A stretch of DNA of 64,000 nucleotides from Prorocentrum cordatum (taxonomy: Eukaryota; Sar; Dinophyceae; Prorocentrales; Prorocentraceae). The stretch covers positions 62,001 to 126,000 of the forward strand of contig CAUYUJ010017827.1 of NCBI GenBank assembly GCA_963575745.1, given 5' to 3'. Shown here one piece after another: positions 6,801 through 60,199 of the stretch (its first letter is position 1; every line of letters starts with the position of its first letter). A program made the translations under genes and the position numbers. The notes beneath the pieces were generated by a model. It ran no database searches. It was not told the origin of the DNA and saw only the letters and a program-made list of their open reading frames with translations.

Positions 6801-7080
6801 GCGGGGTCCAGCCTGGCACTACGCAAAATTTGAACACTCCACTTCTGCCCCCGAGGCCCACAGGGTGCTCGGCAAACCAATTTGACCGAGCAGCCTGGCC
6901 ATTCGCGAAGTGGAAGCTCCTGCCGATACTAGGAACATATCTGATACTTAACACAAAAAGTCTTCGGAGAGCATAGTCGTGCAACGCAATCGTGTGATCC
7001 CCAACGATTAGCTTAGAACACCCCGTATCCACCGTGCCCTCCAAGACGCCCAGTAGCTGAGCTGCTGAAAACTTACACAA
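6800..7080 (-). pseudogene. pol: Retropepsin (aspartic protease) domain
   Basis: In the same frame as gag. The active-site signature DTGCS follows a short hydrophobic strand (LLGVLEGTV); the catalytic aspartate codon is 7027-7029. Downstream LIVGDHT and a hydrophobic strand near FKFCVVPGWTPLLIS fit a retroviral-type protease of about 100 residues, which would act as a dimer to cleave the polyprotein. The domain itself is not visibly broken, but no functional polyprotein surrounds it. Confidence 0.8.
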
Positions 7081-8433
7081 CCTCCTCTTTGCTTCCAAGA
7101 GACACCCCCGAAACCTCGACGGGCCCATCTCGGCTCCCGAGGGGGATGTGGTGCCGTCGGCGCTGGGGGCCTGCTCGGCCTGGGCCGTCTGCTTGCGCGC
7201 CTTCACGCGCAGCCTGCAATCGCGATTCTTGATCTTCGCCGGGTCGTCGGGCCCGGGCGGCGGCGGCGGGTCTGCCGCCGGCTCCTCCGGGAAGTCAAAG
7301 ACGTAGGCCTCCTCGAACTCCTCATGGTCGTGATCCTCCTCGGCGTGGGCCATGCCGACTCCTTCTGCTGGGGCCTTGCGCACCGGTGGGTTCCTGCACT
7401 CCCGCGCCCAGCGGCCCACCTTGTTGCAGCGGTGGCAGCGGGTCCTCTTCTTCAGCTCCTCGATCTTCTTACGAGCTTCCCTCTGGCACTCCATGCTGCC
7501 CTTGCCGCGGCCGCCGGACTTCCCCTTCGGCTCACTCACGTCACGGTAGCCCCTGGACGTCTTGCGGTCGCGGACGATCCCCCTCGTCCCCTGCCAGCTG
7601 CCACGGCCTCCAGGTCCTGCTTGCCACGCCGCCAGCACCGCGTAGGCCTCATCTGCGTCAAGGATGTCCTCCTCGTTGATCTCCTCCTGGTCGGAGCCCT
7701 CCAGCGCCATCAGCGCTTGTGCGATCGGGTCCTCGTCCTCGTACAGCTCGTCATCCTCATCCACGTAGAACGCCTTGCCACTCTTCTGCTGCCCCGAGGT
7801 GTCCCCCTGGTAGCTCCTCGTGGTCTTCTCAAGCGAGCTGTCGTCTCGAAGCCCCTTGAGCGCCGTCCTCGCGTCATCGTGCGTCAGGGACCCCGACGTC
7901 TGCAGGATCACGGCCATGCGCTCCGCGTGGTCCAGCTTCGCCTGCCGGGCGAGGATGTAGCCCTGCACATCGTTCAGCGTCACCTGCAGCTTCCCCAGCC
8001 TGTCGAACGCCTTCTTGATCCTAATCGAGTGCTGCTGCAGGCTTTCTCCCTTCTTGCGCTCCGACCCGTTGAACGTGTGCTCGAACTCCGTGTACTTTTC
8101 ATACACATTCTTCGGCATGATCTCCTGCTCGAGCGCCCTCGCGATGTTCTCTACTCCATCTTCGCCCTCGAGCTCGCTCTGGTCGAGACGTTCCACGATG
8201 CTCTGGATCTGGTCGTCTCCACCCTCCAGAATGCTGTAGTAGGCGTGGAGACCCCGCTGTTGAGCTGGAATCCCCGTCGCCACCATCGACCAAATCCGTA
8301 ATCTGCGCACATACTTCCGCAGCTCCTCGATCGTCGACTCCCTGATGGTGGGTGGCGGAACGTACCTTCCGGCACTCGCGCCCTCACGCGTGACTGGAGC
8401 CACGATCTCTTCACCGTCCTCGTCATCTCCCAT
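7080..8433 (-). pseudogene. gag: Gag region of the copia element
   Basis: Starts at an ATG (8431-8433) about 100 bases inside the 5' LTR and begins MGDDEDGEEIV. It contains a capsid-like helical region (roughly residues 30-200) with a conserved-looking tract around LRIWSMVATGIPAQQRGLH, then a basic glycine-rich stretch and a CCHC-type zinc knuckle at 7396-7437. The knuckle reads CHRCNKVGRWAREC: the expected histidine is arginine (CGC at 7411-7413), one transition away from CAC. Gag would package the RNA. The frame stays open from the start codon through gag and protease, the longest undamaged part of the element. Confidence 0.85.
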
Positions 8434-8524
8434 GTTGTAGCGATGGGCCGCGATGTCTCCGCCGTGTGGTCACTGTCCACCGTGCTGTCTCTGAAACTCT
8501 GGTCCGAGGAAGCGCAACGCAGCG

Positions 8525-8535
8525 CTCCGCTACCA
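8525..8535 (-). promoter_or_regulatory. Primer-binding site, initiator-tRNA-like
   Basis: Immediately inside the 5' LTR the sense strand reads TGGTAGCGGAG. Its complement ends in GCTACCA, which resembles the 3' acceptor end of eukaryotic initiator methionine tRNA, the usual copia primer. The first base overlaps the inferred LTR end. The host tRNA sequence is not available here, so the tRNA identity is inferred. Confidence 0.55.
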
Positions 8536-8725
8536 CCGAACACGGTGGAGCGGCGGAAACGTAAGCGTGAGCTCTCGTACGCCTCCGTTTCCAGTATCAG
8601 CTCAGGCTAACATGTGTCTGCCTCCAAGGGGCCGAAGCCCCTGATCGAACCAAAAGGTTGCGGAAAAGGGGCTGGGTGTCTGGCATCCTCAGAAGGCCTC
8701 TAGAGGGACCCTGGGTCATCTCGCA
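8535..8725 (-). repeat. 5' LTR
   Basis: Partner of 752-941. It would hold the promoter and R region of the element. No TATA-like box is evident, in line with the scarcity of TATA boxes reported for dinoflagellates. The boundaries are set by the paired CAAAG duplications and by where the two copies stop matching. Confidence 0.88.
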
Positions 8726-8730
8726 CAAAG

Positions 8731-9106
8731 TACACTTGGCGGCGGCGGCGGCGGCTGCGGCGGTGGCGGCGGCGGTGGCGGCGGCGGCGGCTGCGGCGGC
8801 GGCTGCGGCGGCGGCGGCGGCGGCGGGGGCGGGGGCGGGGGGGGCGGCGGCGGTGGCGGTGGCGGCAGCGGCTGCGGCGGCGGTTTGGCAGCGGGGGGCG
8901 GCGGCGGCGGCGGCGCGGCGGCGGCGGCGGCGCGGCGGCGGCAGGCGGCGGCGGCGGCGGCGGCGCGGCGGCGGCGGGCTGCGGCGGCGGCTGCGGCGGC
9001 GGCGGCGGCGGGCGGGGGCGGGGGCGGGGGGGCGGCGGCGGCGGGGCGGTGGCGGCAGCGGCTGCGGCGGCGGTTTGGCAGCGGGGGGCGGCGGCGGCGG
9101 CGGGCA

Positions 9107-9155
<49 letters not shown>

Positions 9156-9212
9156 GCGGCGGCGGCGGCGGCGGCGGCGGCGCGGCGGCGGGCGGCGGGC
9201 GGCGGCGGCAGC

Positions 9213-9261
<49 letters not shown>

Positions 9262-9390
9262 ATTGGCCCCCAGTAGCTGCCCATCCAAAAACGATTGCTG
9301 AATATGCTGCGGCTCGGGCCACACTCGGGTGCTACGTATGTGTTGGGAGGGCGGGTGGGAGTGAGCGAGACGGCTTGCGGGCGGGGAGGG
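8731..9390. repeat. Tandem unit copy 2, right part
   Basis: Continues the unit broken at 751. It holds an expanded CGG/GGC tract (8738-9262), then GGATTGGCCCCCAGTAGC and the TGTTGGGAGGGCGGGTGGG segment that match copy 1 at about 424-540. The tract holds two near-copies of a GCAGCGGCTGCGGCGGCGG block (8866 and 9055), so the expansion went by internal duplication. From 9391 to 9540 I see only a C-rich spacer. Confidence 0.8.
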
Positions 9391-9539
9391 GGTAGCTTGA
9401 CCCCTCCCCCTACCTCCTCCCCCTTGGCCTGGAAAAGGGGGGGCCGCGGGTCGCCAGGGCGTCCTTTGTCGGTCCCCGGGAGGCTCATTTTATGACACCC
9501 CTCACAAGGATCGTGGCCCCAGGGGGGGGGAGGCAAGTA

Positions 9540-10720
9540 AGTGTTTTCGTCTTCTTTGACCGACCTCCTCCAAAATGGCCCCAAGAGCGCTCCCAATGCC
9601 CCCAAGAGCGCTCCCAAGTCGGCTCCAAGGGGGCCCCAAGACGGCCCAAGCGGCGGCCAGTACGGCCCAAGAGGGCCCCAAGACGGCCCCAAGAGCGCCC
9701 AAGTGGCGCCCAAAAGCGGCCCATGAGAGCCCCAAGCGGTTCCAAGACCGCCGCAACACGGCTCCAAGTGGCCGCGGAGCCTCCCGAGGACGCCCCCGAG
9801 AAGCTAAGACGGCCCAAGAGGCCCCCCAGACGCTCCAAGAGAGCCCGGAGAGGCGCCCTAAGAGGGCCCCACGAGGCCAAAACCATTGATTTTCCGTTGG
9901 CGTTTCAAACATGTTAGCGTTCCCGCCCTTTCGGCTTCCCGACGCTCCAAGGCAGCCCAACAAGCATGCAAGACCGCCCCAAAACGGCCCAATAGGCTCC
10001 CAAAACGGCTCCAAGACTGCCCAAGGGGGCCCCAAGACGGCCCAAGCGGCGGCCAGTACGGCCCAAGAGGGCCCCAAGACGGCCCCAAGAGCGCCCAAGT
10101 GGCGCCCAAGAGCGGCCCAAGAGAGCACCAAAAGGCTCGGAGACCGCCCCAAGACGGCTCCAAGTGGCCGCGGAACCTCCCAAGGACGCCCCCGAGAGGC
10201 CAAGACGGTTCAAGAGGCACCCAAAACGCTCCAAGAGAGCCCCGAGAAACGCCCTAAGAGGGCCACACGAGGCCAAAATCATGTTTCCCGTAAGTATTTC
10301 AAACATGTTAGCGTTCCCGCCCTTTCGGCGTCCCGACGCTCCAAGACAACCCGAAAGGCCCGCAACACCGCCCCAGGACGGCCCAAGAGGCTCCCAAGAT
10401 GGCTCCAACACGGCCCAAGAGGGCCCCAAGACGGCCCAAGAGGCGGCCAATACGGCCCAACAGGGCCCCATGACGGCCCCAAGAGCGCCCAACAGGCGCC
10501 CAAGAGCGGCCCAATAGGGCTCCAAGAGGCGATATTGCGGGCCCCGACGGGGGTACACCAATAAATGCTTCCCCCTTCTTTGCCCGATGGCCTCCAAGAT
10601 GGCCCCAAGAGACCCCCCAAACTCCCACAAAGAGCCCCGAGAGTGTTTCAAGACTCCCAAAGGAGCCCCAAGAGAGCCCCAGGGCCACGATTCCCTGAGA
10701 TCCCAAGAGAGCCCCAAAAT
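9540..10720. repeat. CCAAGA-type higher-order repeat, about 394 bp
   Basis: Short GGCCCCAAGAG and GGCCCAAGACG motifs repeat every 10-11 bases. They are organised into longer units marked by CAAACATGTTAGCGTTCCC at about 9907 and 10301 (394 apart), giving two full units and a partial third. The minus strand is open over hundreds of codons reading Trp-Gly-Pro-Leu-Gly periodic peptides; several frames are open at once, so I do not call genes. The same family recurs at 22425, 41590, 45845, 54945, 57165 and 58770. Confidence 0.8.
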
Positions 10721-11499
10721 CGCACGGCAACGCCGGGAGGAGGAGGAATACGAACAGAAGGAGCAACGAGGACGAGGAAACGGAGTGGAGGATGGAAGAG
10801 GGAAGCCACAGAGAGGGGAAAGGAAGAGAAAACACCCTACGGTCAGCACACCTTTTTCGAGCGGCTGCGTTTGGATGGGCTGGTGGGGACTCGCGAAGCG
10901 TAAACCATTCAACGTGTCACGCCGCGTTGACTCGTGCCGCGGCCTCTTGCAATGTGGATCGTGCCGTCCGTGGCGTCAGAAACGTGGCCGAGCTTACTTG
11001 GATCTTAAGCTCGAACTGCCTCAACGCATACCTCGGGCTAGTTGCAATCAAGGCGCACGGGGCACTCGACCAGCTCGAGCTCAAGATCCGATTCAATTCC
11101 GAAGCCATCGCCCTGGACATTCAGTTCGGCAGCGGAGCGAGCCGACCGCGACCACGACAGACAGGGGAGAAAATGCGGGGCGTTGAACCAGCTCGAACGC
11201 AAGACCCGATCCAGTTCCGAAGCGAGACAAACCGATCAAAAAGGCGAGTCCGAACCGAAACGAGCAGCACCGAGACAACGACAAGGCCCCCGCTCGACAC
11301 CTCCTCAAACAATGGAGAAGCCAGCGCCTCGCGATAGACATCCTCAACACATCCTGCAGAAGGAGCCTTGCGCTGCAGGCGGGGACCTCGCGCGAGACAT
11401 CCTCCATCCAACAAAGCTAGCGCTCCGCCCTGGACATCCTCAACACATACTCATTTTCATGATCAGCCTGGGCGGCCTGGGAACGTAAAAACCCACGCT
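10721..11499. other. Non-coding stretch
   Basis: No gene recognised. Holds one copy of the GGATGGGCTGGTGG dispersed motif. The tract at about 10990-11100 (TTGGATCTTAAGCTCGA and CTCGAGCTCAAGATCCGA) recurs at 19137-19230. Confidence 0.5.
10869..10909. repeat. Dispersed 41-bp motif, copy 1
   Basis: Reads GTTTGGATGGGCTGGTGG, then GGACTCGCGAAGCGT and AACCATT. Near-identical copies lie at 22774-22816 and 59183-59220 in the same orientation with unrelated flanks. Confidence 0.7.
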
Positions 11500-11790
11500 T
11501 CGCTCACAACGCCCTCAATAAATCCTCATGTCGAAGATCCGCCTGGGCGACGCGGAACAAGCGTGGAAACGCATGGGCCCCTTGCGCGCCAGGGCGGAGC
11601 AAGCATGAACACACGCGGGCCCCTTTTCGCACCAGAGCGGAACAAGCGTGAAAACACGCGAGCCCCATTTCGCCCCGGAGCGAAGTAAACGTGACAACGC
11701 GCGGGCCCCCGGTTGCCCCAGAGCGCTGCAAGCGTGCATTCGCGCGGGCCCCTGTCGCTCCAGAGCGAAAGGGTCTTTTGCCTGGATATT
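11500..11790. repeat. GTGAAAACACGCGGGCCCC minisatellite
   Basis: About six imperfect copies, 40-50 bp each, of a unit with GCGTGAAAACACGCGGGCC, then CCTTTTCGC and CAGAGCG. The same family forms the larger array at 17520-18460. Confidence 0.8.
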
Positions 11791-12410
11791 CGCATCCGTG
11801 CAAAATGTTCCGAAACTGCGGCATTATCAGTGGGCTCCGCCGATGACATGGGGAAGAAGGGATCATGCCGTCAAGCATACACTAGGGCAACACTGAAGAG
11901 AGGAGGCCGGCCCGCCAGCCGACGCACGCGCGCGCGCGCGCCGCAGGCTCGCCCCTTTTCCGTTTCCCTAGAGCCAAAGTGGTATAGCTGCGGGAGAGAA
12001 GCAGTCAGTACATCGGGCAGTGCACGCAAGGCAAAGGAGCAGCAAGGGCTAAAGGATGGTGGCGCGGAAAGGGCGCATTGACCCCCCCCGCGGCGGGGTC
12101 CGCGGAGCCGCCCCGACCCCCCAACCCACCTGACCTGCACATGTGCACAGCCACCAGTGCGACCCCCAAAAACACATTACCGCTCGACGGTGATTGCCAA
12201 GGGGCGGGAGGCCGAAGAAACCCGACGTTCCCCGCCTGAACTAATATTTCCCAGCGCAGGCCAATGCCCGTGCACACCTGGTGCACCCGCTCCATGATGT
12301 AGTTTGGGCCAGCATCGACTCTGTCGCACTGGTTCTACTGCGCTGCTTCACTTCTGCCAATCGCTCCTCCAGTCGCGAGGATCATCCCGCGTGTCTCTGT
12401 TATTCCAGTT
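11791..12410. other. Non-coding stretch
   Basis: Contains a short CG-alternating run near 11929-11942 and a C/G-rich inverted tract near 12085-12115. No coding signal is seen on either strand. Confidence 0.4.
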
Positions 12411-13025
12411 CTACTGGTACTGATCTCTGGAGTAGTTGTCATGTCTATGTTCTCTTCTGCTTGAACTCCTGCTACTTCGCTCGCTCTTGCCCGGGCCCGA
12501 CTCGCGCGGCTTCGCCGTCGACGCTGGCGGCGGCGGGGTCCCCGGCAAGGTACTTGACCCCCCAGAGTCACGTTTGAACTTGTCGTTGTAGTCGTTCAAA
12601 CTAAACCACCGGCACGCTTTGGCGCGGCCAGTGACCCGCTGATAACGAGATGCGCGCGCGCGGTATCCTTAAATCTCTCCATTCTCATACTTGTCCTCGT
12701 AGTCGCCCGTCGCGTCGTAGCTGCCGTCCACGGCCGGCCCGGGCCCGCCGCCGTCGCCCGCGCGGCCGCCGCCCGGCTCTACAGTCGATCTCGCTATAGC
12801 AGGCCCATCGGCCCAAGATTCACGTGCCCGCGACTGGGTTCTGCCATAATCAACCCACCCATCCAGCATTGGCGCCTGGCGAGGCTGGGCCGGCGGGCGG
12901 CGGGGCATAGGGGGCGGCCCCGTAGGACTGTCTTCCGCCCCGGCACCTCGCTCTCGATTTTGGGCGAGGATATCGCTGTGTTCGCTGTCCCGGAGCGGCG
13001 GTGCCGCTCGGGGTAGTTTCTTCAA
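12411..13025 (-). pseudogene. Low-complexity C-terminal part of decayed ORF region
   Basis: Two open segments on the minus strand. The upper one (12669-13025) begins KKLPRAAPPLRDSEHSDIL, is rich in Pro, Gly and Arg, and ends DATGDYEDKYENGEI at a stop. The lower one (12411-12599) is rich in Ser, Arg, Asp and Asn (SERSSRSSSRREHRHD). Their composition suggests disordered tails of the decayed protein seen at 13139-17095. Product unknown. Confidence 0.3.
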
Positions 13026-13138
13026 CGATTGTCTCAGCTGGACTGTCTCTGTGGGAGACTGTCCAGCTGCTGGGACTCAGCTGGGACAGTCTCTGGCGGA
13101 GAGTCGGCCGGGCCGCTCTCCTCCTTTTTCTTCTTAGG

Positions 13139-13783
13139 TCAATTGGTAATTCCAATGGCGTTGTCAGCGTTGAAGACTCCAGAACGGCTGTTGGCAAGAC
13201 AGATCTTGACACTCAAATGAGATTCCGTAGACGTATGTAGGGAAACCATAGCTTCCTGGATGCTTGAGCAATTCCGTCTTGCGGCCTCTGACACTTCGTT
13301 CCCAAATCCTTTGGCCCATTCATGAAGTAGGTCAAATGACTCGTCGGCGGACCTAATCCGACAATCCAAAGCATAAGCGTCACGAATAACTTCAAGAGCT
13401 GCATTCGCATTGTCTGGATAACGCTGTACCTCGCGCCCCCGACATGCAACATTGATTCCCGCAGACATGAAAATAATACTACTTCTCGGACAGCTAACAG
13501 AATCCGCCCCCATCTCCCGCGAGTGGGGACTCGGTCGAATGGTTGATTCCAGATTCTGTCCACGAGCTCGGACAATCCTGGCGGCGCATCATGAATGATG
13601 TCTTTCTCCAGCGGCATCGTAGCTGGAAGTGTTGATAAATATTCAAGAATGAACTGCGTTGCAAATCCGGTAACTTCTGGCCCATCGCATGGGTCACCAT
13701 TATACTTAAAGCTCGGCATAAAGCCAAACATAGAAACCACATCAAGCCAGAAGGGCAACGTTCTCGTCGGAACAATCAGCTGA
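13139..13783 (-). pseudogene. Decayed protein segment, unknown family
   Basis: Two overlapping minus-strand frames read as one protein with a frameshift near 13500. The upstream part contains FKYNGDPCDGPEVTGFATQF and SELVDRIWNQPFDRVPTRG; the downstream part contains AALEVIRDAYALDCRIRSAD and DLLHEWAKGFGNEVSEAARR. Mixed hydrophobic and charged residues without repeats, and lower GC than the surroundings, argue for former coding DNA. I recognise no domain. It probably belongs with the other minus-strand fragments up to 17095. Confidence 0.45.
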
Positions 13784-14067
13784 TGACGCTGGGCAATATG
13801 TTTTTAAGAGCATATGCCATCCGGCGTCGCAGCCTTCTCTTCACGTGCTGATATTACTTCATCAATACGGTTGGGCCGATACTGAGGTTCAGCAGCAAGC
13901 CGGAAATCTATGTCTCCGACTTGGTTCGACGCAAGAGCTCGAATGGCTTCGTTCAAGTTTTCCGTTATCCATTGAACTGATGAAATTATTATTCCTTTTT
14001 CCGCCTTCTCTTGCCCCCATTGGCTCCATCATGTCTCCGGGCGATATTGCTCGGCATTAACAGGTTC

Positions 14068-25262: not shown

Positions 25263-25415
25263 TAGGGGGTCACATGCGAACCCTACCCCTACCCCCAACG
25301 AGTTCTGAGGGGGAGGGTGGGGTTCACTTCGTTCGGGAGCTCCCACACGAAGTGAACCCCACCCTCCCCTCAGAAATCGTGGGGGGTAGGGGTAGGGTTC
25401 GCATGTGCCCCCCTA
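25263..25415. repeat. Foldback element, 70-bp inverted arms
   Basis: Arms 25263-25332 and 25347-25415 pair with three mismatches and one 1-base indel. The loop is about 14 bases and itself contains GGGAGCTCCC. The outer bases are TAGGGGG / CCCCCTA. AGGG flanks both sides, a possible short target duplication. It sits inside the degenerate array and resembles a MITE or foldback transposon; no coding capacity. Confidence 0.8.
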
Positions 25416-50329: not shown

Positions 50330-52540
50330 GCGCTAGAGAAGCGAGGCACTCTATACGCCCTTTATGACTCCTCACGAAGCCCTGTAGAGATCCTACATAA
50401 ACCCTATGGGGATCCAACAGAAAACCCTATAGGGATCCGGCAGAAACCCTAAAAGGATCCGACCGAAATGCTATCAGGATCCCCCAGAAGCCCTGTAAGG
50501 ATCCTACAGAACCTGTTAGGGATCCTACAAAAACCAGGTAGGGATCCTACAAAAACCCGATCGGGATCCTACAGAAACCCGACAGGGATCCGACAGAAGC
50601 CCGATAGGGATCCTGCAGAAACGCTGTGTATAAGGATCCTACAGCAACCCTAATATATGGATCCCACAGAAACCCGATAGGGATCCCAGAGAAACCCTAT
50701 AGGGATCCTGCAGAGACCCTGTAGAGATTCCTGCAGAAGCCCGATATGGATCCTACAAAAACAATACTATAAGCATCCTACAGACACCGTACGATTCGGA
50801 TCCTACAGAAACCCTGCAAAGATCCTACAAGATCCGCATAGGGATCCTAGCAGGTGCAATAGGATCCCCACAGGGATCCTACCAGCTGCAATGATATCCC
50901 TACACGGATCCTACCAGCTGTAATAGGATCTCTGCAAGGGGTCCTACCAGCTGCAATAAGGTCCTTATAGGGATCCTACCAGCTCCAATAGGAACCCACA
51001 GGGGTCCGACCAGCTGTCTCAGGATCCCTACATGGATCCTACCAGCTGCAATAAGATCATTATAGGGATCCTATCAGCTGCAGTAGGATCCCTACAGGGA
51101 TCCTACCACCTGGCATAGGATCCCTATCGGGATCCTACCAGGTGCACCGGGATCCTTATAGGGATCCTCCCAGCTGCAATGAGATCCATCTGTGGATCCT
51201 ACAGGGACACTACGGGGATCCGGGAGAAAACCTAGAATGACCCTGCAGGATCCTCATGGGGATCCTACACTCTGCACTCGGGTCCCTACAGGTGTCCTAT
51301 CCAATGCAGTAGGAACCCTACATGGATCGTACCAGCTGTCACCAGATTCCTATGGGGATCCCACCAGCTGCAATAAGATCATTAAAGGGATCCTCCCAAT
51401 TACAAAAAGATCCCTACAGGGATCCGACCAAGTTTCATAGAATCCCTATCGGGATCCTCTGACAGCTGCAATAAGATCCTTATAACGATCTTACCAGCTG
51501 CAAGAGGATCCCTGCAGGCATCATACCAGCTGTCATAGAATCCCTATGGGGAGCCTACCAAGTGCACTGGGATCCTTCTAGAGATCCTCCGAACTGCAAT
51601 AGGATCCCTACAGTGATCCGACCAGCTGTAAACGGATCCCTGTAGAGATCCTACTAGCTGCAATAGGATCCCTCTAGGGATCCTACCAGCTGCAGAGCAA
51701 TAGGATCCCTACGGGGATCCTACCAGCTGTAATCGAATCCTTTAAGGAATGGACTAGCTGCAATAAGATCCATTTGGGAAGCCAGCCATCTGCAATCGGA
51801 TGCCGACAGTGCTCGATGCCAGCTGGTGGGATCCCCGTAGGGATCGAATTGCAGCTGGTAGGATCCCTAGACGGATCCTTCTGCAGCTGGTGGGATCCCG
51901 AGAGGGATCCGTTTGCAGCTGGAGGGATCCCTGTGGGATCCGATTACAGTTGGTCGGATCCCTGCAGGGATCTTGTTGCAGCTCGGAGGATCCCTCTAAG
52001 GATCCCAATGCACCTGGTAGGCTCCCTATAAGGATCATGTGACAGCTGGCACGATCCTCGTAGGGATCCAATTGCAGCGGGTAGGATCCGTATGGGGATG
52101 CTATTGCATATGGTGGGATCCCCATCGGAATCCTATGACAGCTGCAATGAGACCCTTGTAGGGCTCCTACCAGCTGCAAGAGGATCCCTGCAGGGATCAT
52201 ACCAGCTGTCATAGAATCCCAACGGCGATCCTCCCAGGTGCACTGGGATCCTTATGAGGATCCTCCCAGCAATAGGATCCCTATAAGGATCATACAGGAT
52301 CCTGATGGGGATCCGACAGCAACCTTATACGCATTCGACAGAAAACCCTCAAGGATCATACAAGATCCTTATGGGGATCCTACCAGCTGCAATCGGATCC
52401 CTACCAGGATCCTACCAGCTGCAATAGGATGCCTACATGGGTCCTACCAGCTGTCATAAGATCCCTATAGGGATCTCACCAGCTGCAATAAGACCCTTAC
52501 CAGCTGTCATAAGATCCCTATAAAGATCCTACTACAGGCC
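50330..52540. repeat. GGATCC satellite, two unit types, internal inversion
   Basis: 50390-50830 has 22-25-bp units (GGATCCTACAGAAACCC-TATAG). 50840-52540 has about 31-32-bp units (GGGATCCTACCAGCTGCAAT, then AGGATCCCTA). Between about 51780 and 52110 the second unit runs in reverse complement (CAGCTGGTGGGATCC). Nearly every unit holds one or two GGATCC sites. Not CRISPR: there are no unique spacers. Confidence 0.92.
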
Positions 52541-52850
52541 ACGAAACGTGTGAGGGGTGCTCCGAAATTGGCCCGAAGCCTTCGGTGGAGCATCCTGCGG
52601 GGCCACGAAACGTGTGAGGGGTGCTCCGAGATGGGCCCGGAGCCTTAGGGGGAGCCTTAGGGGGAGCCTCCTGCGGGGCCACGGAACGTGCGAGGGGTGC
52701 TCCGAAATTGGCTCGAAGCCTTCGGGGGAGCCTGCTGCGGGGCCACGGGACGTGTGAGGGGTGCTCTGAGATGGGCTCAAAGCCTTAGGGGGGCCTCATG
52801 CAGGGCCACGAAACGTGTGAGAGGTGCTCCGAAATTTGCCCGAAGCCTTG
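52541..52850 (+). repeat. CACGAAACGTGTGAGGGG minisatellite, array 1
   Basis: Five copies of GGGGCCACGAAACGTGTGAG, GGGTGCTCCGAAATTGGC and CCGAAGCCTTCGG, 60-75 bp each. Confidence 0.85.
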
Positions 52851-53154
52851 CAGGTTTGGAGCGGTTCCTACGAGGATACTTGCAGCTCTGGTACGATCCC
52901 TATAAGAACCGATGCAGCCCTGGTGCGATGCCTGTAGCGATCCTACCTCAGCTGTGGCAGGACCCCCAATGAGGGTCCAAACGGCTGAAGTTGGATCCCT
53001 ACAGGGCGTCCCTTTGGTTGTCTGGGGGCCCTTTGGGTGTCCGGGGGCGTGGGGGTACGGGGACGTAGGGGTGTGGGAGGGGGCGCCGAGGCCCCATGGT
53101 AGGAATCCATCATCCCTCAATGAATTGCGAGGAAATCTCGAACAGGAACCGTCC
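52851..53154. other. Spacer with diverged GATCC units
   Basis: A few CGATCCCTATAAG-type remnants to about 52990, then unique G-rich DNA. No gene. Confidence 0.5.
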
Positions 53155-53236
53155 GCGTTGTTGTTGCTGCTGATGCTGTTGTTGCTGTTGTTGTTGCTGT
53201 TGCCGTTGCCGTTGCTGTTGCTGTTGCTGTTGCTGT

Positions 53237-53289
<53 letters not shown>

Positions 53290-53423
53290 TTGTTGTTGTG
53301 TGGGTGGGGGGGGCGGCGCCGGGGTCCGGCGCCCGCTCCGACTCAACAACAACAACAACAGCAGCAACAGCAACAACAACACCACCACCACCACCAACAC
53401 CAACAACAACAACAACAACAACC

Positions 53424-53456
<33 letters not shown>

Positions 53457-53646
53457 CCAACACCAACACCAACAACAACAACAACACCAACAACATCAAC
53501 ACCACCACCACCACCAACAACAACAACACCAACACCACCAACAACAACAACAACAGCAACATCATCAACAACAACAACACCAACAACACCAACAACAACA
53601 ACAGCAACACCAGCAACATCAGCAACAACAACAACGACAACAACAC

Positions 53647-53677
<31 letters not shown>

Positions 53678-53697
53678 ACCAACACAAACACAAACAC

Positions 53698-53745
<48 letters not shown>

Positions 53746-53772
53746 CCACAACGACAACAACAACAACAACAA

Positions 53773-53821
<49 letters not shown>

Positions 53822-53868
53822 AACAACAACAACAACATCAACACCAACACCAACAACAACAACACCAA
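53155..53868. repeat. (TTG)n then (CAA)n, opposed
   Basis: TTGTTGCTG repeats at 53155-53300 and CAACAACAC repeats at 53341-53868 face each other across a 40-base GC-rich centre, an inverted arrangement able to form a long hairpin. Both run adjacent to the element at 53869. Confidence 0.9.
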
Positions 53869-54850
53869 TCATTTTAAGACTGTTCGCCCTTATATGCTCG
53901 AGTGTAAAAAAAACGCGTATTTCCCAAACACTCGATACCCGCCCTCTCCGTCTTCGATCGAACCCCTTTTGGGGGGTATACCTTTCTTCCCTGCAGGCCG
54001 GGCCCCGGCAAGCGGCGGGGCGGCCGCGGACCGTCGGCCTGGCCAGCGGCAGCGTTGATCGGCGGGGCGGCCGCGGACCGTCGACCCGACCCCAAGAGGG
54101 ACGGACAGGGGACCGACGACGACGACGACGACGACGTCGAAGACGACGGCGACGGCGGCGACGACGAGCGAAAGCGAGAGCGAGAGAGAACGACAGCAGG
54201 GCCACGAAGGGCACGAAGTAGGCCACGAAGGGCGACAGCGGGGACACGAAGGGAATGCGTATGAGGCCACGAAGAGTGCGAACGAGCGGAGGCCACGAAG
54301 TGCAGATAATGCGGGGCCACAGAAGGCAACTATGGGGCTACTGAGGGTAGCAACTGGGCCACGTAGGACAATGAGGGGGACACGACGGGCGACAGCGGGG
54401 CCGCAAAGGGCATGCACATGAGACCACAACGGGCGCGACTCCTGGGTGCCTGAGTGTCGGGAGCGCGGCGCTTGGGCAAATTGCAGGGAATTCCAACGCA
54501 AGGCTGTTCCTCAGTAAGTTGCAAGCAAGTCTCCAGCGAGAGCGCCACGCCAGAGCTCTGGGAGAGCGATTCCTGAATAAAGTGTAAGGAAATCCCAAGC
54601 GAGAGCGCGATTCCTAAATAAAATGCGAGAAGTCTCGGGCGGAAGCGGGGGTTCTGCCTAAATTGTAAGGAAACCTCAGGCGGGAACCGTTGTTGTTGTA
54701 ACCCGGGGGCCAGGGGGCCAGTTTGAGCAGGAAGACTTTCCCTGTCAAAAAACAGGGTGCAAGCGTCGAGGGGCACACTTTGATTGAGAAAAAGCAGTAT
54801 GCACCGGTGGGGGGGGATCAACAATAATTATTCTTCATAAATGAAAATTC
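53869..54850 (-). repeat. TTG-tailed family, reverse copy
   Basis: Close sister of 47537-48880: same TCATTTTAAGACTGTTCGCC end, CCTGCAGGCCGGGCCCCGGC, a GACGACGACG block, a much shorter GGCCACGAAGGGC array (54198-54400), the 50-bp subrepeats (54430-54690) and the GGGGGGATCAACAATAATTA end. Confidence 0.75.
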
Positions 54851-55509: not shown

Positions 55510-56448
55510 TCAATCTATCTTGATCGAAGCGTAAATGCCGCGTACAAAAGCAAATGACGCGAGGGCGCCAACGGATCCAGTCATCAGGGAGAACAATACA
55601 GAAACGATTCCCATGTAACCGAAATAAAGCACTGTCGGCACGAACCTATCGATCAGAAGCCTGTTGCTGAAATACAAAACAGAATATGCAAACACGTAGA
55701 CCCCAGACGAAGCACTCGTTAGGAATGACCGCCACCACCAGCGGTGATCCTCCGCGGTGAGCTGGAAGTACGTCAGCATGATGGAAATCTCGGCGCATGT
55801 CACACACAGAATGACAAGCACGAGAGCCAGGAACCCAAACAAGTAATAAAACTGGTGCTGCCACAGCGAGGACATGATGAAGAACAACTCGGTGAAGACG
55901 GCACCGAAGGGCATGGCGCCACCGACGAGGCACGTGAATGCTGGCCGCATGAGTCGGGCCAGGCGAAAGGGGGGGATTGCAAAGGGGAAGTTTGAGAAAC
56001 AGCTCACGCAGCTGCCTTTCCCAGCGCCTCCCGGCGCCGGGAGGCGCCCATGTATCGAGGAATGGGCCCGGCGGTGGGGCCGAAACCAGCTGCATGTAGC
56101 AGATTTCGTAACCCCCCCTTTCCCTATCCCCCCCTTTCGTTCGGCCCGCATGAGGAGTGACTGCTCGGGGATTTGCCTGGCGATTGCGCTAGTGCGGACT
56201 GGCAGCTCGATGGTCGCCCTGCGCATCGCCACCCAGGATCCAAGGAAGACCAGGGGCACCGACACGCAGAACCAGAGGGCCAGCAGCAAGAACATCGTCG
56301 TGAAGGGCACTGCGCCGGAAGACTTCTGCCCCCAGATGAGCAAGTTCAGCGCGAAGAAGACGGCGAAGACGGCGCCGGGCCAGAGGAAGGCGGTCAGGAG
56401 CGTGGTCTGCCTCCACGCTTCCCCGTTGAGAACCTTGTAGAGCCTCGC
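55510..56448 (-). CDS. TM9SF: TM9SF (nonaspanin/EMP70) protein, C-terminal exon
   Basis: Encodes the end of a transmembrane 9 superfamily protein, a Golgi/endosomal multispanning protein involved in membrane-protein sorting and adhesion. The exon starts after a CAG at 56449-56451 with ARLYKVLNGEAWRQ. Membrane segments visible: TTLLTAFLWPGAVFAVFF, SSGAVPFTTMFLLLALWF, CLVGGAMPFGAVFTELFFI, FYYLFGFLALVLVILCVTC, YVFAYSVLYFSNR and FVPTVLYFGYMGIVSVLF. Family signatures include IARQIPEQ, QFYYLFGF and AEDHRWWWRSF. It ends IYASIKID at a TGA (55510-55512); the KxD C-terminus is the family's retention signal. A 201-bp insertion (55946-56154) adds 67 in-frame codons absent from the family. The frame above 56448 is intron. 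Confidence 0.92.
   Translation of the reverse strand, partial: ARLYKVLNGEAWRQTTLLTAFLWPGAVFAVFFALNLLIWGQKSSGAVPFTTMFLLLALWFCVSVPLVFLGSWVAMRRATIELPVRTSAIARQIPEQSLLMRAERKGGIGKGGVTKSATCSWFRPHRRAHSSIHGRLPAPGGAGKGSCVSCFSNFPFAIPPFRLARLMRPAFTCLVGGAMPFGAVFTELFFIMSSLWQHQFYYLFGFLALVLVILCVTCAEISIMLTYFQLTAEDHRWWWRSFLTSASSGVYVFAYSVLYFSNRLLIDRFVPTVLYFGYMGIVSVLFSLMTGSVGALASFAFVRGIYASIKID
55946..56154 (-). mobile_element. Introner-like TIR element in TM9SF exon
   Basis: In the coding sense, CTCATGCG occurs at 56147-56154 and again at 55946-55953, 201 bp apart. Just inside lie terminal inverted repeats of 22 bases, 19 matching: GGGCC, three variable bases, then CGAAAGGGGGGGAT (56126-56147) against its inverse (55956-55977). 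A perfect 24-bp palindrome of GC-rich sequence sits near the centre (56024-56047). Removing one repeat plus the insert restores the family's spacing between RQIPEQ and the PFG motif exactly (19 residues). The insert keeps the frame (67 codons). No GT or AG is available at the repeats for canonical splicing, so removal would need a non-canonical mechanism, or the insert is retained. Confidence 0.82.
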
Positions 56449-56739
56449 CTGGATATATTTCTCGTTTTGCCAGTCTGCAGCAGTCTGGAGCTGTTCGCTC
56501 TCCACTGCGCGCGTTTCACTCCACATGTACGCCCCAGGCCCTCGACTCCGGCCCTCTTCGTCTCTGAGCGTCTCCCTTCTTGGGTCGCTGATGTTTGTTC
56601 ATCCCAGCTCCTTGGTAAACGCCAACAGGGATGGGCGGGCGGCGGGCCTTCGGAAATTGCAACATCCTAAAGAAGTCGGGCGGAACCCCGGACCCCATCT
56701 GCCTACAGCAGACTTCGAGTCTGACGAATCTATTGCTGC

Positions 56740-59360: not shown

Positions 59361-59622
59361 ATGCTGAAGGCGTTTCAAGCGACGAGCACTGTACTCTGAT
59401 GGATCGGATCACCGACACAATTCGAGCACAAACCCTTCCCCGGACAACAAACCATCTGCGAATGCGAAGGGCCAAACTTCGATTGTCAAAAACCAGTGCT
59501 GGCCTGCGATTTCTTATCATTAATCGTCGTTCTTCAGGCATGGAACCCCAACAGCAACCAAGACAAAGAGAGAGAGAGAGAAAGGACACAGGAAACAAAC
59601 AGAGGCACACCAACAAACTCGC

Positions 59623-59736
59623 CTGCACGTACCCCGCAGATACGCCCATGAGGGTGAAAACCAACATCATCGACTGCAAAAGGCTCCCGCGGTGTGCCGG
59701 CGAGAGCAGCCCCATCAGGGAGAATGCGAGGGTCAC
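59623..59736 (-). CDS. TM9SF: TM9SF internal exon
   Basis: A 38-codon exon, phase 0 at both ends, reading VTLAFSLMGLLSPAHRG then SLLQSMMLVFTLMGVSAGYV and ending in VQ. The LLSPAHRGSL element matches the conserved LSP(S/A)xRG loop between membrane segments of the TM9SF family, followed by the GxxAGY turn. The acceptor is CTCTGCCAG preceded by a pyrimidine-rich stretch (CCCGCTCTTCCCGTCCCCC); the donor is GTGCAG/GCGAGT. It belongs directly upstream of the exon at 56448. Exons encoding the large lumenal N-terminal domain and the first membrane segments were not found between 59737 and 64000, so the gene is partial in this window. Confidence 0.85.
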
Positions 59737-60199
59737 CTGGCAGAGGGGGACGGGAAGAGCGGGAACGGTGGGGACCCATAATTGCATCTGACGTGGTGCT
59801 TCGGTCCCAAAGAGAGGCCTCCCACATTGGGTAGGTGGGGTCGGAGGACCGCGCTGCATCGCCGATGCATCAGCGACGTCGATGATGCATCTGCGTCTCC
59901 GGCGTGGGGCGTGGAGAACATTGGGCTCCACATAGATTCGCATCGCCGATGCATCGGCGATGCGGCGAAATCCTCCGACCCCCACTACCCTGAGCCCATC
60001 GGGGAGGCCTGGCGCAACTGAATCAACTCCCTGCAGGCCTTCACCTACTCCCAGGGACCGGCCTGTCATCCTGAGTCGTCTGATGACAGCCTCAGGGCCG
60101 TGTGAGGGCCTCCCTGGGGCAAACAACAACTGGCCAGGCGAAGGAGCAAACTATATGCAGTGCAGTTGTGGGTAACGCAGTTGTGAGCATTGTCTTCGG
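59737..60199. other. Probable upstream TM9SF intron
   Basis: No exon recognised. Contains a perfect 26-bp palindrome centred on ATGCAT (59939-59964) and a related partial copy near 59865. Confidence 0.5.

What the first reader, a model, noticed from the sequence alone, without database searches (positions are those of the whole stretch)
55946..56154. Transposon-like introner caught inside a TM9SF exon
The insert has an 8-bp direct repeat (CTCATGCG) at each end, 22-base terminal inverted repeats (19 of 22 matching) and a central 24-bp perfect palindrome. Deleting it with one repeat restores the conserved spacing of the protein exactly. This is the expected form of a non-autonomous DNA transposon that became an intron (introner), as proposed for several algae and reported in dinoflagellates. 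Unusually, no GT/GC...AG pair is available at the repeats, and the insert is in frame with no stop. It may therefore be removed by a non-canonical, structure-based route, or be translated as a 67-residue insertion.
Basis: partly seen in the sequence, partly recalled or inferred. Interest (0 to 1): 0.88.

Follow-up and report, generated by a model that had tools for sequence, protein, structure and literature searches.

The report
Mobile hairpin DNA inside TM9SF exon
A small jumping DNA element that occurs in thousands of copies in a red-tide alga's genome has landed inside a gene for a membrane protein; this copy lacks ordinary intron signals and has lost its stop codon, so it probably adds 67 amino acids to the protein, while another copy in a different gene is built like a true intron.

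Summary
The insert is real and is a transposon. The window lies in a 4.13-Gb genome whose size and G+C match Prorocentrum cordatum. The insert (55954-56149) is one copy of a 196-bp hairpin element; its terminal motif occurs 14,407 times, reversed control 0.

The TM9SF gene is otherwise complete; the homologues and paralogues examined lack the insert. "Introner" is only partly right. None of the ten exact-removal registers is GT/GC/GA...AG; the nearest frame-keeping option is a GA-AG intron adding one residue. Element plus duplication is 201 bp, 67 codons. The frame used here has TGA in 37 of 40 copies, TGT in the window; 0 of 39 others both keeps length and is open. Translation is my leading reading (0.5).

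A sister copy differs: in an MscS-channel exon it has CACAG|GT...ACAG|GC borders and an in-frame stop, and a paralogue is uninterrupted. So the family can form canonical-looking introns. No RNA evidence was available.

The parts
55954..56149 (-). Element proper: 196-bp palindromic MITE-like transposon copy, read on the coding (minus) strand of TM9SF
   Evidence: 39 other genomic copies 88-95% identical, mostly over this stretch; consensus 196 bp, window copy 6.6% from consensus
55949..55953 (.). Target-site duplication, copy 1 (ATGAG on the + strand, CTCAT on the coding strand)
   Evidence: Five positions identical left/right in 35-38 of 40 copies, 5-16 of 40 outside them
56150..56154 (.). Target-site duplication, copy 2 (ATGAG)
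   Evidence: the 9-bp repeat at 56146-56154 contains it
55954..55977 (+). Terminal inverted repeat, left (TCGGGCC...CGAAAGGGGGGGAT)
56126..56149 (-). Terminal inverted repeat, right; last base (56149) is C where the family has A
56024..56047 (.). Central 24-bp perfect palindrome, also in the family consensus
55999..56001 (-). Codon TGT (Cys) in the frame read from the exon; TGA (stop) in 37 of 40 copies
55941..56138 (-). Candidate GA-AG intron (198 nt, AAC|GAAAGG...GCCAG|CAT); keeps frame and would add one residue
   Evidence: of 33 frame-keeping, stop-free GT/GC/GA-AG pairs near the ends, the only one within one codon of exact removal; the next is 7 codons off
55510..56448 (-). Last TM9SF (EMP70) coding exon, interrupted by the element
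   Evidence: Pfam PF02990 E 2e-79 for the reading frame 55510-56526; tblastn
59623..59736 (-). Preceding TM9SF exon; joined by a GC-AG(G) intron with 8-nt repeated borders CAGGCGAG

Best explanation
The insert is a young copy of a high-copy, hairpin-shaped, apparently non-autonomous DNA transposon (196 bp, 5-bp target duplication) in a dinoflagellate nuclear genome matching Prorocentrum cordatum. It inserted into the last coding exon of an otherwise intact TM9SF gene. Element plus duplication is 201 bp, so insertion did not shift the frame, and the stop codon of this frame has been lost by one base change. The most likely outcome is that the copy stays in the mRNA and is translated as 67 extra, probably disordered residues in a loop between membrane helices. 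Shown: family, copy number, duplication length, frame, stop absent, gene open. Inferred: retention and translation, age, loop position.
For: Family: all 40 scored hits (the window and 39 others) are copies; 14,407 terminal motifs, reversed control 0; 5-bp duplication. Retention: no GT/GC/GA...AG pair at any of 10 exact-removal registers; TGA in 37 of 40 copies at the codon that is TGT here; 26 of 39 other copies keep length modulo 3 and 0 of those 26 is open in this frame and orientation; 3 of the window copy's 13 differences from consensus are private among the 40, and the stop-removing one is shared with one copy only. Gene open over five exons. A predicted structure (mean pLDDT 68.8) leaves residues 110-167, inside the insert, below pLDDT 50 between two helices.
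Against: No transcript or peptide seen. Of the 13 differences from consensus 11 fall in codons whose residue (or stop) changes and 2 are silent, so nothing shows selection on the peptide. Three of 40 copies lack that TGA, so its loss could be chance; and 4 of 39 others are open in this frame when length is ignored. The closest homologue P0001 (94% identical where aligned, 979-bp contig without the 3.2-kb intron, hence cDNA-like) has no insert; it may be another species, or a spliced product. A sister copy is intron-like.
Confidence: 0.5

Rival explanations
1. It is an introner spliced by the spliceosome at non-exact borders: donor GA inside the inverted repeat (56138), acceptor AG in the downstream exon (55941), removing 198 nt and leaving one extra residue (LLMRAEPFTC for LLMRPAFTC).
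For: GA donors are 23.8% and acceptors other than AGG 20.3% of introns in P. cordatum (Table 2 of PMC10666404); the pair keeps frame; a GA-AG intron fits another intron of this gene; a CCCCCCCTTTC tract precedes the acceptor; PMC9860276 describes introners that add codons and recruit sites from the exon (passages).
Against: The four other introns of the gene, as I chose them among the listed candidates, end AG|G; this one would end AG|C. A frame-keeping pair near any site is not rare (my rough estimate, no call). It does not restore exact spacing and does not explain the lost stop.
Confidence: 0.22
2. Exact removal by a structure-based, non-canonical route: the hairpin brings the duplications together and 201 nt are cut out, as suggested for Amoebophrya introner elements and for euglenid nonconventional introns.
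For: The insert is one strong hairpin; exact removal restores family spacing; Amoebophrya introners have inverted repeats, 3-5-nt direct repeats at the borders and variable splice motifs (PMC7789003, passages); euglenid nonconventional introns have variable borders and a structure that brings the ends together (PMC4770533, start of abstract).
Against: The hairpin is a property of the transposon family, and no Pfam domain spanned the site in the 20 of 39 other loci tested; the gene's other introns fit GT/GC/GA-AG; donors of annotated P. cordatum introns are GT, GC or GA for 99.9%, though that pipeline was set for these; the sister exon copy has GT-AG borders.
Confidence: 0.12
3. The insertion is retained but harmful: this TM9SF copy is a recently disabled gene, or a variant of the sequenced strain, covered by paralogues.
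For: Several TM9SF paralogues without the insert exist in the genome; few differences are private to this copy, so the insertion looks young.
Against: All five exons are open and conserved; frame kept and stop absent, which a dead gene does not need.
Confidence: 0.13

Closest known systems
Introners of dinoflagellates and other protists (PMC9860276 and PMC10666404, passages and one section read; Roy et al. 2023, known here only from reference entries and a summary in PMC11453091)
   Same: Hairpin DNA transposon with target duplication and inverted repeats; P. cordatum introns are reported to be enriched in introner elements; the sister copy in the MscS gene has AG|GT...AG|G borders made from duplication and element.
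   Different: The TM9SF copy has no such borders and is open in frame; splicing not observed for either copy. In 20 of 39 other loci tested no Pfam domain spanned the site.
Amoebophrya non-canonical introner elements (Farhat et al. 2021, PMC7789003, passages)
   Same: Inverted repeats at both ends, short direct repeats at the borders, predicted hairpin, no canonical borders at the exact-removal registers.
   Different: Those are defined by RNA-seq-supported introns; none was available here, and the host gene's other introns fit ordinary dinoflagellate splice sites.
[quoted passage not shown]
   Same: About 200 bp, too short to code for a transposase, inverted ends, fixed-length target duplication, thousands of copies.
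   Different: Nearly the whole element is one palindrome; the 5-bp duplication and TCGGGCC ends were not matched to a named superfamily, and no transposase was sought.
Transposon exonisation (general knowledge, not from a call)
   Same: Transposon sequence inside a coding exon with an open frame through it.
   Different: Usual cases recruit splice sites from intronic copies; here it would be direct insertion into an exon of an element whose unit length is a whole number of codons.

Membership tests
Non-autonomous DNA transposon / MITE | Terminal inverted repeats | tested here: met
   19 of 22; seen in the 39 other copies
Non-autonomous DNA transposon / MITE | Target-site duplication of fixed length | tested here: met
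   5 bp; allowing small shifts of the right end, 30 of 40 copies perfect, 9 with 4 of 5, 1 with 3 of 5
Non-autonomous DNA transposon / MITE | Many dispersed copies | tested here: met
   14,407 terminal motifs at up to 2 mismatches, reversed control 0
Non-autonomous DNA transposon / MITE | Mobilised by a transposase of an autonomous relative | not tested
   No autonomous partner sought
Introner (this copy) | Inserted inside a coding exon, absent from relatives | tested here: met
Introner (this copy) | Splice sites that remove it | tested here: inconclusive
   No exact GT/GC/GA-AG register; one GA-AG option adding one residue
Introner (this copy) | Removed from mRNA | not testable with these tools
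   No RNA data for this gene
Introner (sister copy L090 in MscS gene) | In an exon, with canonical borders, empty in a paralogue | tested here: met
   CACAG|GT...ACAG|GC; paralogue C21189 aligned without a gap
Introner (sister copy L090 in MscS gene) | Removed from mRNA | not testable with these tools
   No RNA data
Amoebophrya-type non-canonical introner | Inverted repeats of 8-20 nt at the ends and direct repeats of 3-5 nt at the borders | tested here: met
   definition
Amoebophrya-type non-canonical introner | RNA-seq-supported removal at non-canonical borders | not testable with these tools
   No RNA data
TM9SF / EMP70 | EMP70 domain along the protein | tested here: met
   PF02990 E 2e-79; five exons align with residues 19 to 634 of a 634-residue homologue

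The most novel reading that the evidence does not exclude
The TM9SF copy is excised exactly, duplication to duplication, by a hairpin-guided route independent of GT/GC/GA-AG borders, in a photosynthetic core dinoflagellate that otherwise splices normally; one transposon family would then feed both spliceosomal introns (MscS copy) and structure-excised introns (TM9SF copy).
Probability: 0.12. Interest if true: 0.85.

Novelty: new member of a known kind. Interest (0 to 1): 0.52.

Why it matters
It catches one transposon family at two exon insertions with different likely fates: a copy with AG|GT...AG|G borders and an in-frame stop in an MscS gene (a candidate new intron), and a copy without such borders but with its stop codon gone in TM9SF (a candidate new protein segment). 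The rule suggested by these two cases, that the five duplicated target bases decide which fate is open, can be tested on the thousands of copies in this genome with RNA-seq, and bears on the open question of how introns are gained in bursts.

Tried and rejected
Searching proteins for the 67 residues: 20 candidates, none at E up to 10; only proteins of about 186-591 aa could appear. Terminal patterns in viral contigs: none. In bacterial and archaeal genomes: 3 hits, near my estimate for chance, with no more than the terminal stretch matching. Second transcript search for this gene, open to proteins of about 296-941 aa: best 77% among the 120 listed; P0001 is too short to appear there. PDB relatives by sequence: none. 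Reading the repeat as an 8- or 9-bp duplication: rejected by the 40-copy comparison. Other hairpins in the window as members of this family: blastn of the insert on the window gave no other match below E 0.1. Open frame as evidence on its own: rejected; what matters is that this frame carries a stop in the family. First chance scan: its offsets were too narrow for this pair and the 51-52 kb repeats filled its top list; replaced. Enrichment of splice-ready NNAGG duplications: not claimed; 160 exact AGG hits against 14,407 hits of a different pattern at looser stringency is near the 1.4% that duplication composition predicts. Coding flanks of the 39 other copies: the longest junction-spanning frame of 20 loci went to Pfam, 0 hits; 19 loci were not tested. 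AGG-type copies: 40 of 160 fetched. Frames were printed for 35 of them (four with unclear ends skipped, one without a frame of 50 residues) and judged by eye; two (L090, L088) went to Pfam. A 129-residue piece of L090 gave no hit at E 0.1; the 300-residue frame did. In 6 of the 40 the 3' end is unclear, and for others its placing is doubtful: 18 of 40 combine a perfect duplication with a length of 194-197 bp.

Full report
What the sequence shows. The insert lies in the last coding exon (55510-56448, minus strand) of a TM9SF/EMP70 gene (PF02990, E 2e-79). The direct repeat is 9 bp, the inverted repeats match 19 of 22, and the centre is a 24-bp perfect palindrome. 55935-56165 folds as one hairpin (RNA z -8.5, DNA z -7.8); in a sliding-window scan it is twelfth in the window. 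Among 6,772 direct-repeat pairs of 9 bp or more (left copy outside 50.6-54.3 kb) this pair has the best inverted-repeat match; the best in 300 first-order Markov sequences was 17 of 22. An earlier scan with narrower offsets and no exclusion did not list it among its top 15.

The organism. The assembly behind the window has 4,128,499,153 bases in 21,875 contigs; the window is 59.4% G+C (from the base counts). P. cordatum CCMP1329 is published at 4.15 Gb, 22,724 scaffolds and 59.7% G+C, with donors GT 24.7%, GC 51.4%, GA 23.8% and 79.7% AGG acceptors (PMC10666404, section 5 read).

The gene. Protein relatives include dinoflagellate entries (Polarella glacialis, MMETSP transcripts). tblastn over the window from 55,001 and 40 kb of fetched sequence beyond its end finds five open exons covering residues 19 to 634 of a 634-residue homologue. 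For its four other introns I chose, among the candidate joins listed, GA-AG, GT-AG, GT-AG and GC-AG, all with AG|G acceptors; the last has the same 8 bases CAGGCGAG at both borders. So the gene is complete and ordinary apart from the insert.

The empty site. The pattern script found one constant spacing in 193 of 198 homologues; four of the other five show it by eye and one (P0171) lacks the motif. The closest relative, P0001 (94% identical where aligned, from a 979-bp contig lacking the 3.2-kb intron, hence cDNA-like), reads SFFMRPAFTC where the window reads SLLMR-insert-PAFTC. In the same genome the paralogues L052, L053, L054 and L057 run through the site without the insert. A DNA search with the exon part downstream of the insert gave 14 places; besides the gene itself the longest match is 72% identical and short ones reach 86%, so no near-identical copy or allele was found.

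The family. One genome search with the insert gave 1,639 first-look candidates; 40 were scored and all 40 are copies, 39 besides the window at 88-95% identity. Aligned flanks give the ends TCGGGCC...GGCCCGA, a 196-bp consensus, and a 5-bp target duplication: the five positions agree in 38, 35, 36, 36 and 35 of 40 copies, the neighbouring positions in 5-16. The window's 9-bp repeat is ATGAG plus four further matches, one of them at the last element base, which is C instead of A. L037 and L039 show identical flanks and L021 and L025 similar ones, so the 40 are not all independent. A 28-base terminal pattern with up to 2 mismatches occurs 14,407 times, the reversed control 0 times. The two ends resemble each other, so this means roughly 7,000-14,000 elements, not all complete (inference). 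In 20 of the 39 loci the longest frame across the empty site was compared with Pfam: no hits. This points to a general transposon rather than a gene-restricted one; the other 19 loci were not tested.

Splicing of this copy. The ten registers that would remove exactly 201 bp have dinucleotide pairs CT-GA, TC-AC, CA-CT, AT-TC, TG-CA, GC-AT, CG-TG, GG-GC, GG-CG and GC-GG, none usable by known dinoflagellate rules. Of 33 frame-keeping, stop-free GT/GC/GA-AG pairs near the ends the best is a 198-nt GA-AG intron (AAC|GAAAGG...GCCAG|CAT) that adds one residue; the next is seven codons off. Its AG|C acceptor differs from the gene's other AG|G acceptors.

Open frame. 196 + 5 = 201 = 3 x 67, so an insertion of full length does not shift the frame; 26 of 39 other copies keep this. 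In this orientation and frame the family carries a TGA, present in 37 of 40 copies and TGT in the window. None of the 26 frame-keeping others is open in this frame; 4 of 39 are open when length is ignored. Three of the window copy's 13 differences from consensus are private among the 40 and the stop-removing one is shared with L018 only, so the stop loss is among few recent changes. This favours translation over splicing but is one event. Against it, 11 of the 13 differences fall in codons whose residue changes and 2 are silent, so there is no sign of constraint on the peptide. A structure prediction (37-sequence alignment, mean pLDDT 68.8) leaves residues 110-167, inside the insert, below pLDDT 50 between two helices. 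The loop is probably cytosolic, inferred from four predicted helices after it and the recalled cytosolic C-terminal motif of TM9SF proteins.

A sister copy that looks like an intron. From the element ends I reasoned that exact removal with AG|GT...AG|G needs a duplication NNAGG. The pattern AGG plus element end occurs 160 times, reversed control 0. I fetched 40 of these 160 (30 loci, 10); 34 of the 40 have at least 4 of 5 duplication bases matching at the best-fitting end, and 18 combine a perfect duplication with a length of 194-197 bp. Frames were read by eye for 35. One, L090, lies in a recognisable coding exon: an MscS channel (PF00924, E 2.2e-14 for the 300-residue frame; a 129-residue piece gave no hit). 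Its borders are CACAG|GTCGGG...CGAACAG|GCTC and the retained copy would bring an in-frame TGA. The genome search finds its own gene split there (residues 1-35 and 32-197 of the query), while a paralogue (C21189, 84% identical, no stops) and a more distant one (C17230, 52%) run straight through. The paralogue aligns at DNA level without a gap. That is the anatomy of an introner; splicing is predicted, not observed.

Conclusion. For the TM9SF copy I rank retention and translation first (0.5), GA-AG splicing second (0.22), a disabled or variant gene third (0.13), exact structure-based removal fourth (0.12). The family looks introner-capable; this member of it is not shown to be an intron.

Literature seen. 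PMC10666404: passages and section 5. PMC7789003, PMC9860276 and PMC11453091: passages. PMC4770533: search listing and start of abstract only. Roy et al. 2023 and Huff et al. 2016: reference entries only, with a summary of the former in PMC11453091. Searches for introner with dinoflagellate, Prorocentrum with introner, Prorocentrum with transposable elements and MITE, and introner with target site duplication and splice site listed no title that speaks of this element; most listed papers were not opened, and subscription papers are mostly not in the library.

Noticed in passing
window 25270-25415: A near-perfect hairpin of about 145 bp (-165 kcal/mol for 220 nt, the strongest of the sliding-window scan) with ends TTAGGGGG...; looks like another hairpin transposon, with at most a 3-bp duplication (GGG) by eye.
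   Followed up: partly
window 59835-59985: Another hairpin with inverted ends GGGTAG..GGGGTCGGAGGA inside an intron of the same TM9SF gene; no clear target duplication seen by eye.
   Followed up: partly
window 50600-54300: Dense direct and inverted repeats (GGATCC-rich near 51-52 kb; arms up to 200 nt), left out of the second chance test.
   Followed up: no
window 59615-59628 and 56441-56451: The 3.2-kb GC-AG intron of TM9SF has the same 8 bases, CAGGCGAG, at both borders, as an old target duplication would.
   Followed up: partly
L057 947-2783: A TM9SF paralogue with two adjacent in-frame stops (LW**RSF) in an otherwise conserved stretch; perhaps an exon border misread by tblastn, perhaps a dead gene.
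   Followed up: no
window 55945-55948 and 56146-56149: Four bases (CCGC) beside the true 5-bp duplication also match on both sides, one of them at a changed last element base; across the 40 copies these positions match in 6-14, so it is not a family trait.
   Followed up: yes
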